Below, in pieces: positions 3,741-12,751 of a stretch of DNA of 44,504 nt. Position 1 is the stretch's first letter, and every line of letters starts with the position of its first letter. The notes beneath the pieces were generated by a model that was given only the letters and a program-made list of their open reading frames with translations, was not told where the DNA came from and made no database searches. The stretch lies in contig JAFZIG010000169.1 of assembly GCA_017554485.1 (NCBI GenBank), positions 1 through 44,504 of the forward strand, written 5' to 3'. The DNA is from Acidaminococcaceae bacterium (GTDB taxonomy: Bacteria > Bacillota > Negativicutes > Acidaminococcales > Acidaminococcaceae). The position numbers and the translations under genes were made by a program.

Positions 3741-4325
3741 ATGAAAAGAGTATTTGCGGTTGCGTTAGCTGTAGTGATGCTGCTAAGTGTAGTTCTCAGC
3801 TGTTCCGGCAATAAAAAGGAAACACCGCCTGCAGCTAATCAGACAAAAATTACAGAGAGCCAGAATAAAGGAAGCGGTAATGCGGTAAAGGTTCCGAACA
3901 AGGCTAAACAGGAGCAAGATATCAGGCAGGAGTCCGTAACAAAGAGTGTTGCAAATGCCAACACCGGCACAGTGGCAAAAGTTGATGTAGAAAAAGGTAA
4001 AGCCTATACCGATAAAGATCGCGTAGCAGCTTATATACATATTTACAAAACATTGCCGCCCAACTATATCACCAAAGGCCAGGCCACCAAGTTAGGCTGG
4101 AAGACCAAAGGGTCGCTGGATCAGGTTGCGCCGGGGAAGAGCATCGGCGGTGATCGGTACGGCAATTATGAAAAAAAGCTGCCGGATAAACAGGGGCGGA
4201 CCTGGAAGGAATGCGACATCGATTATGTGAGAGGCAACCGGAACGCGAAACGGATCTGCTTCTCCAACGACGGGCTGATTTATTATACTTCATCCCACTA
4301 CCAGAAGTTTGAACGCCTGTATTGA
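3741..4325 (+). CDS. Lipoprotein-anchored barnase-family ribonuclease
   Basis: Guanyl-preferring endoribonuclease of the barnase (RNase N1/Ba) family. The N-terminus is a lipoprotein signal (LLSVVLSC, lipidated Cys21), followed by about 65 residues of flexible K/N/Q/T-rich linker. The catalytic domain spans about 88-194 and aligns with barnase throughout: LPPNYITKGQA, GWKTKGSLDQVAPGKSIGGD, GRTWKECDIDY, SSHYQKF. The general base Glu157 (barnase E73), Arg167 and Arg171 (R83, R87), Lys112 (K27) and His186 (H102) are all present, so it should be active. The substrate-loop residue matching barnase R59 is Tyr143. The Shine-Dalgarno run (GGGGG) lies 11 bases before the ATG, which suggests weak translation. 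Barstar follows 92 bases later. The membrane anchor is unusual for this family; whether it sits in the inner or outer membrane is unknown. Confidence 0.92.
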   Translation: MKRVFAVALAVVMLLSVVLSCSGNKKETPPAANQTKITESQNKGSGNAVKVPNKAKQEQDIRQESVTKSVANANTGTVAKVDVEKGKAYTDKDRVAAYIHIYKTLPPNYITKGQATKLGWKTKGSLDQVAPGKSIGGDRYGNYEKKLPDKQGRTWKECDIDYVRGNRNAKRICFSNDGLIYYTSSHYQKFERLY

Positions 4326-4351
4326 ACAGGAATTAACCGGAATTAACAGAC

Positions 4352-4417
4352 ATGAGATATGATACAGAACATAACGGCGTGTATACCGGAGTGTGGCTGC
4401 CTGAGGAGGTTCGCTAA
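4352..4417 (+). CDS. Possible 21-residue leader ORF before barstar
   Basis: An ATG-initiated frame of 21 codons ends in TAA immediately before the barstar ATG. The peptide contains VYTGVWLPEEVR, which looks protein-like. It has no clear ribosome binding site of its own, but its last codons contain the strong Shine-Dalgarno (GAGGAGG) of barstar. It could couple or modulate barstar translation, or be chance. Two GGAATTAAC repeats lie just upstream, at 4329-4337 and 4339-4347. Confidence 0.2.
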   Translation: MRYDTEHNGVYTGVWLPEEVR

Positions 4418-4699
4418 ATGGAAATCGAATTGGACGCAAAGCGTTTTAAAGGAAGGACAAGAGCTCACGCTTATTTAAAGGAAGCACTGCATTTACCTGA
4501 TTACTATGGCAAAAATTTGGATGCGTTATATGACTGTCTGGGGGATATTGCCGAAGAGACGGTGATCGTGGTACCGGAAGTGATACAGAAAAAGGAGTAT
4601 CTTGGTGAATATGGCAAGACCATGCTGCGGGTTTTTAAAGACGCAGCGGAAGAAAACGGGATGCTAAAGGTTATTATAAAAGAAATGCAAAAGAAATAA
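4418..4699 (+). CDS. Barstar-family ribonuclease inhibitor (immunity protein)
   Basis: Small cytoplasmic protein that binds barnase and blocks its active site, protecting the producer. At 93 residues it is close to the classical barstar length. The interface helix reads LPDYYGKNLDALYDCL (26-41) and keeps Tyr29, Asp35 and Asp39 at the same numbering as the Bacillus protein, where Asp35 and Asp39 plug the active site. Trp38 is replaced by Tyr, and the acidic residue matching Glu76 is Asp75. GAGGAGG lies 8 bases upstream, far better placed than the barnase site, so inhibitor should be made in excess. It lies directly downstream of the barnase gene and is probably co-transcribed. Confidence 0.92.
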   Translation: MEIELDAKRFKGRTRAHAYLKEALHLPDYYGKNLDALYDCLGDIAEETVIVVPEVIQKKEYLGEYGKTMLRVFKDAAEENGMLKVIIKEMQKK

Positions 4700-4730: not shown

Positions 4731-4824
4731 CAGAAAGTTCCAAGCGTGCATCAAGCGGCTGTTTTAAACTGCAATTCATCAAAGATACGTGATTATCAGT
4801 TATTATTCAGCGAGACAGAGGACC

Positions 4825-5448
4825 ATGGTAAAAGAACTGGATTATTTCTGGGTAGGGGAAGAATATGGGGGAAGGCAGAGCCTGCTGCCGGATTTTATCA
4901 TGCGGTTTGCAGGGTGCGCGGCTGTTACAGCCTGCGACAGCCTGATTTACATGGCGCTGTACAAAAACAAAAAAGGCCTATGCCCTTTTTCCACGGACCA
5001 GCTGCGTGGAAGGGACTATGTAAAGTTTTTTAAAACCGTGAAACCCTACCTCCGTCCCCGGTTCGGGGGCATCAACAAACTGGATATGTTTGTGGATGCC
5101 TTTAAAAAGTTCCTGAAAGAGCATGGGCAGACTCTTTTGGACGTGCTGCCCTGGTCCGGCGATCATGCAGAGAAAAGTACAATAGACGCAATCAGGCAGC
5201 AGATTGATAAAGGTTTCCTCATCCCTTACCTGCTGCTTCACCATCAGAACCCTGCCTTTGAAAACTATGAATGGCACTGGTTTTTGCTGACAGGCTATGA
5301 CGAAAGACCGGATGGGCGCTTCCTGGTGAAAGCGGTGACCTACGGCTCCTATGAGTGGCTGGATTTTGCCAAGCTGTGGAATACGGGCTATGAACGCAAA
5401 GGCGGACTGGTCCTGCTCCAGGAGCATTTACCGCGAGAGAATGCTTAA
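4825..5448 (+). CDS. Papain-like (peptidase C39-like) protein of unknown role
   Basis: No named family is certain. The sequence has the layout of a C39/papain-like fold. A Cys lies in an early helix (FAGCAAVTACDSLIYM, Cys31). A conserved His occurs in YEWHWFLLTGYD (His151), followed by a strand (RFLVKAVTYGSYEWLDFAKLW) that would carry the third catalytic residue. There is no signal peptide, so it is probably cytoplasmic. The ATG at 4825 is preferred (GAGG just upstream, though close); an in-frame GTG at 4789 is the alternative and would add 12 residues. It follows barstar by 125 bases and is closed by the hairpins at 5445-5548. Whether it belongs functionally to the barnase-barstar pair is unknown. 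Confidence 0.6.
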   Translation: MVKELDYFWVGEEYGGRQSLLPDFIMRFAGCAAVTACDSLIYMALYKNKKGLCPFSTDQLRGRDYVKFFKTVKPYLRPRFGGINKLDMFVDAFKKFLKEHGQTLLDVLPWSGDHAEKSTIDAIRQQIDKGFLIPYLLLHHQNPAFENYEWHWFLLTGYDERPDGRFLVKAVTYGSYEWLDFAKLWNTGYERKGGLVLLQEHLPRENA

Positions 5449-11911: not shown

Positions 11912-12751
11912 ATGAAAAGTTTGAAAAAGATTGTTCTGGCAGGCGCGGTAAGCGTACTGGCTTTGGCTCTGGCCGGCTGCGGCGGCGGGGATAAGAAGGC
12001 GGACAAGGCGAAACCGGATCCATCCAAGCCGGTCATCGTCGGCGTCAATCCGGGACCCCATGCCATCATTATGGAAAACGTGAAGAAGATCGCGGAAAAG
12101 AAAGGGCTGAAGATCGAGATCAAAGAGTTCAGCGATTTCGTAACGCCTAATGCGGCGCTGGCTGCCGGGGAAATCTGGGCCAACAGCTACCAGCATGAGC
12201 CCTTCCTAAAAGCTACTATGAAGAAGGAACCGAAATACAAACTGGCCAAGGCCTTTAATACGGCGCTGTTCCCCATCAATATTTATTCCAAAAAGCTGAA
12301 ACCCGGAGACAAGATTCCCGACGGTGCCAAGATCGGTATCCCCAACGACCCCACCAACGGCGGACGCAGCCTGCTGCTGCTGGCGGCCAACAACCTGATC
12401 AAAGTGAAGAATCCGAAAGATATTTCCACCACTGTACAGGATATTACGGACAACCCGCATAAGTTGCAGATCGTGGAACTGGAAGCGGCGGCGATTCCCC
12501 GCAGTCTGGAAGACCTGACCTGCGCAGCCATCAATACCACCTATGCGCTGAACGCCGGGCTGAATCCGGCCAAGGATCCCATCGTCAAAGAAACGGCAGA
12601 TTCCCTGTATGTGAATATCGTGGCAGTCCAGGAAAAAGACCTGAACGATCCGCGGCTGAAGATTTTCCAGGAAGCCTACCAGTCTAAGGAAAACGGCGAT
12701 TTCATCAAGACGAAGTTCCCCGGTTCCGTATATCTGGGTTGGAAGGAATAA
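11912..12751 (+). CDS. metQ: MetQ/NlpA-type methionine-binding lipoprotein
   Basis: Substrate-binding lipoprotein of a MetNIQ-type ABC importer, expected to capture methionine (D, L or derivatives) outside the inner membrane. Lipobox LALAGC with Cys23. The NlpA/MetQ signatures are clear: VGVNPGPHAIIMENV, the EFSDFVTPNAAL segment, NSYQHEPFL, KIGIPNDPTNGGRSLLLLA and IPRSLEDLTCAAINTTYAL. GAGGAG precedes the ATG. No metN or metI gene lies near, so it either works with a transporter elsewhere or has specialised. The M20 amidohydrolase starts 7 bases after its stop, suggesting that released or N-acylated amino acids feed the same route. No SAM riboswitch-like leader is visible. A paralogue lies at 17884. 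Confidence 0.9.
   Translation: MKSLKKIVLAGAVSVLALALAGCGGGDKKADKAKPDPSKPVIVGVNPGPHAIIMENVKKIAEKKGLKIEIKEFSDFVTPNAALAAGEIWANSYQHEPFLKATMKKEPKYKLAKAFNTALFPINIYSKKLKPGDKIPDGAKIGIPNDPTNGGRSLLLLAANNLIKVKNPKDISTTVQDITDNPHKLQIVELEAAAIPRSLEDLTCAAINTTYALNAGLNPAKDPIVKETADSLYVNIVAVQEKDLNDPRLKIFQEAYQSKENGDFIKTKFPGSVYLGWKE

What the first reader, a model, noticed from the sequence alone, without database searches (positions are those of the whole stretch)
3741..4699. Membrane-anchored barnase with a changed barstar interface
The barnase domain has all its catalytic residues but is preceded by a lipobox (Cys21) and a 65-residue linker, whereas the classical enzyme is freely secreted. In the Bacillus complex barnase R59 contacts barstar E76 and W38. 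Here the R59 position is Tyr, W38 is Tyr and E76 is Asp, while Asp35 and Asp39 are kept. The changes fall on both sides of the same contact, as expected for a co-evolved specificity pair. The immunity gene has a much better ribosome binding site. Together this suggests a surface or periplasmic toxin rather than a scavenging RNase.
Basis: partly seen in the sequence, partly recalled or inferred. Interest (0 to 1): 0.72.

Follow-up and report, generated by a model that had tools for sequence, protein, structure and literature searches.

The report
Lipid-anchored barnase with cytoplasmic barstar
A rumen bacterium makes a barnase-type RNA-cutting enzyme that appears to be tethered to its own cell envelope by a lipid, with its dedicated inhibitor encoded next door; this form turns out to be common in related bacteria, and one contact between enzyme and inhibitor has clearly co-evolved.

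Summary
At 3741-4325 (+) lies an intact barnase (PF00545) with a lipobox at Cys21, a disordered linker of about 65 residues and all catalytic residues; at 4418-4699 lies a barstar (PF01337) without a signal peptide. The genome is a Succiniclasticum (Acidaminococcaceae). Against Bacillus barnase/barstar, Arg59 is Tyr, Trp38 is Tyr and Glu76 is Asp, as stated.

With relatives from about 1,670 genomes: the lipobox occurs in 30 of 30 Acidaminococcaceae barnases and 100 of 185 sampled overall, against 3.5% of other ORFs, so anchoring is the usual form here. In 149 barnase-barstar pairs, position 59 co-evolves with barstar 38 and with the charge at 76, beyond control column pairs on the tree. The Glu76-to-Asp change itself is not specific to Tyr59.

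The step from this to 'toxin rather than scavenging RNase' is not supported. The domain is under strong purifying selection (dN/dS 0.03-0.05), the locus is stable in the genus, no delivery module or swapped toxin tip is present, and Bacillus relatives are phosphate-starvation enzymes. Most likely it is an envelope-tethered scavenging RNase with a cytoplasmic self-protection inhibitor: a variant of a known kind.

The parts
3741..4325 (+). Barnase-family RNase, 194 aa, predicted lipoprotein precursor
   Evidence: PF00545 E 3e-17; about 55% identity to barnase/binase; model confident from about residue 81 on
3741..3803 (+). Lipoprotein signal peptide MKRVFAVALAVVMLLSVVLS-C, lipobox VLSC with Cys21
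   Evidence: Same motif in 30 of 30 Acidaminococcaceae barnases; G20/C21 nearly invariant in relatives (Ser at 20 here); LspA gene present in the genome
3804..3998 (+). Low-complexity linker of 65 residues, predicted disordered
   Evidence: pLDDT under 50 at residues 25-77; 33% mean identity in the genus against 86% for the domain
3999..4322 (+). Barnase catalytic domain
   Evidence: PF00545 match 94-193; catalytic residues invariant; Foldseek hits are barnase/binase
4167..4169 (+). Tyr codon at the position of barnase Arg59
   Evidence: Alignment to binase 1buj; Tyr in 51 of 149 pairs, Arg in 69
4401..4417 (+). Shine-Dalgarno region of barstar (GAGGAGG)
   Evidence: Duplex energy -12.8 kcal/mol
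4418..4699 (+). Barstar (inhibitor), 93 aa, no signal peptide
   Evidence: PF01337 E 1.3e-20; 159 of 185 barnases sampled have a barstar just downstream
4529..4531 (+). Tyr38 of barstar (Trp38 in Bacillus)
4640..4642 (+). Asp75 of barstar at the position of Glu76

Best explanation
The pair is a conserved, chromosomal, lipid-anchored guanyl-preferring RNase with its cytoplasmic inhibitor. The enzyme is made with a lipoprotein signal, exported by Sec, lipidated at Cys21 and cut by LspA, and stays tethered in the envelope (periplasmic face of the inner membrane, or the outer membrane of this diderm) on a flexible arm of about 65 residues. There it cuts RNA, most likely to recover nucleotides, bases and phosphate. 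Barstar stays in the cytoplasm and neutralises any enzyme that folds before export. Shown here: architecture, conservation, pairing, purifying selection, co-variation of the interface. Inferred: lipidation, location, RNase activity, nutritional role.
For: Lipobox in 30 of 30 family members and 100 of 185 barnases overall against 45 of 1287 other ORFs; LspA present; disordered, poorly conserved but always present linker; catalytic residues invariant; 13 of 14 genus genomes carry the pair, usually beside the same genes, in a housekeeping neighbourhood; dN/dS 0.03-0.05 in the domain; barstar directly downstream in 159 of 185. Bacillus relatives are induced by phosphate starvation (PMC5021464).
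Against: No Pho box was looked for, and no nucleotidase or uptake gene was seen beside the pair; location is predicted from sequence by rule, without SignalP or an experiment. A tether is not obviously useful for scavenging polymeric RNA outside an outer membrane unless the enzyme is surface-exposed.
Confidence: 0.6

Rival explanations
1. Surface or periplasmic antibacterial toxin: the tethered barnase is delivered to neighbouring cells by contact and barstar is the immunity protein.
For: Toxin-immunity gene order; barnase is a known tip of polymorphic toxins with barstar as immunity (PMC3482391); a co-evolving interface.
Against: No delivery domain in the 194 aa; no alternative toxin tips or orphan barstars in the genus; strong purifying selection; much the same interface state throughout the family. 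The 2012 survey itself sets simple barnase-barstar pairs apart as lacking notable polymorphism.
Confidence: 0.12
2. Envelope RNase acting as a barrier to incoming RNA or phage: an envelope-located defence enzyme.
For: Location at the entry face (inferred from the lipobox); not excluded by any result here.
Against: Housekeeping neighbourhood; high conservation in a genus is unlike most defence genes.
Confidence: 0.08
3. Ordinary secreted barnase: the signal is cut by signal peptidase I and Cys21 is incidental.
For: Classical Bacillus barnases are Sec-secreted; some sampled homologues have a hydrophobic leader without a lipobox.
Against: Cys with a lipobox in 30 of 30 relatives while the linker after it drifts.
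Confidence: 0.08

Closest known systems
Barnase-barstar of Bacillus amyloliquefaciens (and balifase-YrdF of B. licheniformis)
   Same: Same RNase and inhibitor families, same catalytic residues, same gene order as balifase with its inhibitor
   Different: Lipobox and long linker instead of a signal plus propeptide; Tyr59/Tyr38/Asp76 in place of Arg/Trp/Glu
Polymorphic toxins with a Tox-Barnase tip and Imm-Barstar
   Same: Same nuclease and immunity families and order
   Different: No secretion, repeat or delivery domains and no tip swapping here
Lipobox barnases of other Bacillota sampled here (e.g. L051, L054, L045, L024, L025)
   Same: Lipobox, linker, barnase, barstar downstream
   Different: Shorter linkers in many (about 20-40 residues); Arg59/Trp38 interface in the group around G444

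Membership tests
Barnase (guanyl-preferring N1/T1 RNase, PF00545) | Profile match and barnase fold | tested here: met
   63.3 bits against a cut-off of 24; Foldseek top hits barnase/binase, TMt up to 0.90
Barnase (guanyl-preferring N1/T1 RNase, PF00545) | Catalytic Lys27, Glu73, Arg83, Arg87, His102 | tested here: met
   All present; Glu73, Arg87 and His102 in 149 of 149 pairs
Barnase (guanyl-preferring N1/T1 RNase, PF00545) | RNase activity with guanine preference | not testable with these tools
   Needs the purified protein
Barstar (PF01337) | Profile match, Asp35 and Asp39, no export signal | tested here: met
   73.6 bits against 23.4; Asp35/Asp39 present; no signal peptide seen in the sequence
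Bacterial lipoprotein | Positively charged start, hydrophobic core, lipobox Cys, LspA in the genome | tested here: met
   Lgt was not searched for
Bacterial lipoprotein | Lipid actually attached to the Cys | not testable with these tools
   Needs labelling or mass spectrometry
Polymorphic toxin / contact-dependent toxin | N-terminal delivery module and swapped C-terminal tips at one locus | tested here: not met
   Only signal, linker and barnase; same content in all genus loci examined

The most novel reading that the evidence does not exclude
Lipid-anchored barnase is the commonest form in the sampled Bacillota, the free Bacillus enzyme being the less usual one, and natural pairs fall into interface classes (Arg59/Trp38/acidic 76; Tyr59/Tyr-or-His38; acidic or polar 59/basic 76) that inhibit poorly across classes.
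Probability: 0.35. Interest if true: 0.5.

Novelty: new variant of a known kind. Interest (0 to 1): 0.4.

Why it matters
Barnase-barstar is a standard model of protein-protein binding, studied almost wholly on Bacillus proteins. Natural pairs with a different solution at a measured contact, and with apparent charge reversal there, would give ready-made tests of binding specificity. A widespread lipid-anchored form also raises the question of what these RNases do at the cell envelope.

Tried and rejected
Independent-pairs test on the tree: almost wholly concordant but without power, medians not significant. Commonest-residue coding of 59 against 76: not above controls (LR 6.4; 77 of 220 controls as high); only the charge coding is. 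Tyr/Phe59 against Asp76: not significant (p 0.15). A simple tree-simulation null is too lax, since all inter-protein pairs average z 2.0 against it; ranked by that z, 59-76 is 46th and 59-38 100th of 4745. The promoter and terminator scan gave nothing clearly above shuffles. Plasmid collection: only four distant records. Papers on a lipoprotein barnase: none recognised in the lists returned.

Full report
What is there. The window belongs to an assembly of 2.57 Mb. Close orthologous loci (up to 95% identity in the domain) are titled Succiniclasticum, Acidaminococcaceae or Selenomonadales, among them Succiniclasticum ruminis DSM 9236. The ORF at 3741-4325 is a barnase (PF00545, 63.3 bits) and that at 4418-4699 a barstar (PF01337, 73.6 bits). 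The barnase domain is about 55% identical to barnase and binase, and AlphaFold2 gives a confident domain from about residue 81 on, with residues 25-77 under pLDDT 50. Catalytic positions are invariant among 27 relatives. The stated interface residues are right: Tyr at barnase 59, Tyr at barstar 38, Asp at barstar 76.

Anchoring. A rule-based lipobox test (no SignalP was available) finds the motif in 30 of 30 Acidaminococcaceae barnases and in 100 of 185 barnases in all, against 45 of 1287 other ORFs of at least 100 aa in the same loci. An NlpA-type lipoprotein in the same window (11912-12751) shows the same kind of motif, LAGC. The genome has a signal peptidase II gene. The linker is 33% identical in the genus against 86% for the domain. 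So a lipoprotein is the better reading than a free enzyme, and it is the family's rule.

Pairing and spread. 13 of 14 genus genomes have the barnase and the same 13 have one barstar each. The barnase is found in 31 of 59 genomes of the family, 35 of 380 of the class and 19 of 398 drawn from the phylum. Further samples centred on other genomes gave 53 of 150, 56 of 391 and 28 of 250. Of 185 barnase hits, 159 have a barstar close downstream. The sample was chosen by barnase hits and is uneven across groups, so overall fractions are rough.

Interface. In the Bacillus complex, Arg59 contacts Glu76 by its side chain and Asp35 by its main chain (PMC4207830); the Arg59-Glu76 coupling was measured as relatively weak (PMC7830974). 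Among 149 pairs the 59/38/76 states are RWE 45, YYD 27, RWD 17, YHD 12 and many rarer ones. An aromatic residue at 59 goes with a residue other than Trp at 38 (53 of 56; 11 of 93 otherwise). All 75 pairs with Arg/Lys59 have an acidic 76; six of twelve with Asp, Glu, Asn or Thr at 59 have Arg or Lys at 76.

Control for kinship. On a tree built without these columns, Pagel's dependent model is better for 59-38 (LR 31.6) and for basic 59 with acidic 76 (LR 27.0). Control pairs of columns reach at most 18.4 (220 pairs, where 59-38 in the same coding scores 22.6) and 14.9 (248 pairs in the same charge coding). By mutual information with APC the two pairs rank 18 and 16 of 5168. The groupings were chosen after seeing the table, and the independent-pairs test lacks power. 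I take the co-variation as real for 59-38 and for charge at 59-76, but Glu76-to-Asp on its own says little.

What it does. Within the genus the domain has dN/dS of 0.03-0.05 in the comparisons where dS could be computed. In several genus loci the pair sits between the same secreted protein and the same unnamed 219-aa protein; in the window it lies near RarA/MgsA, NlpA and M20 peptidase genes. There is no delivery domain and no sign of tip exchange. Zhang et al. 2012 list barnase-barstar among polymorphic toxins but suggest that the simple pairs represent an incipient order without notable polymorphism (PMC3482391). Balifase and binase, Bacillus enzymes of the family, are induced by phosphate starvation, and balifase lies in an operon with its inhibitor (PMC5021464). 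I therefore favour an envelope-tethered scavenging RNase with a cytoplasmic safety inhibitor at 0.6; a contact toxin is possible at 0.12.

Novelty. Both protein families and their pairing are known. The lipid-anchored form and the second interface solution were not found described in the papers searched, which is a limited library. I score it as a new variant of a known kind.

Noticed in passing
L147, L153, L154, L156, L162, L163: Short barnase proteins without a signal peptide whose start carries a CxxC...HGKIY...HxxCRC-like motif, resembling phage MuF-type minor head proteins (resemblance from memory); several have Asp, Asn or Thr at 59 and Arg at barstar 76.
   Followed up: partly
L054 and L064 (both genome G743): One genome carries two barnases, one with a lipobox and one with a plain hydrophobic leader, each with its own barstar; other genomes of that group also have two barnases.
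   Followed up: partly
L166, L167: Barnase domain at the C-terminus of reading frames of about 580-595 aa within the stretch held, without a barstar found close by.
   Followed up: no
window 4326-4417: The gap between barnase and barstar is 92 bases here but mostly 9-23 in the other family loci; it holds a short repeat, GGAATTAAC.
   Followed up: partly
window 4789-5448: A 219-aa protein with no Pfam or NCBIfam match, over 70% identical near the pair in much of the genus.
   Followed up: no
L052: Barnase domain fused behind what looks like an alpha/beta-hydrolase domain (386 aa), with a barstar downstream.
   Followed up: no
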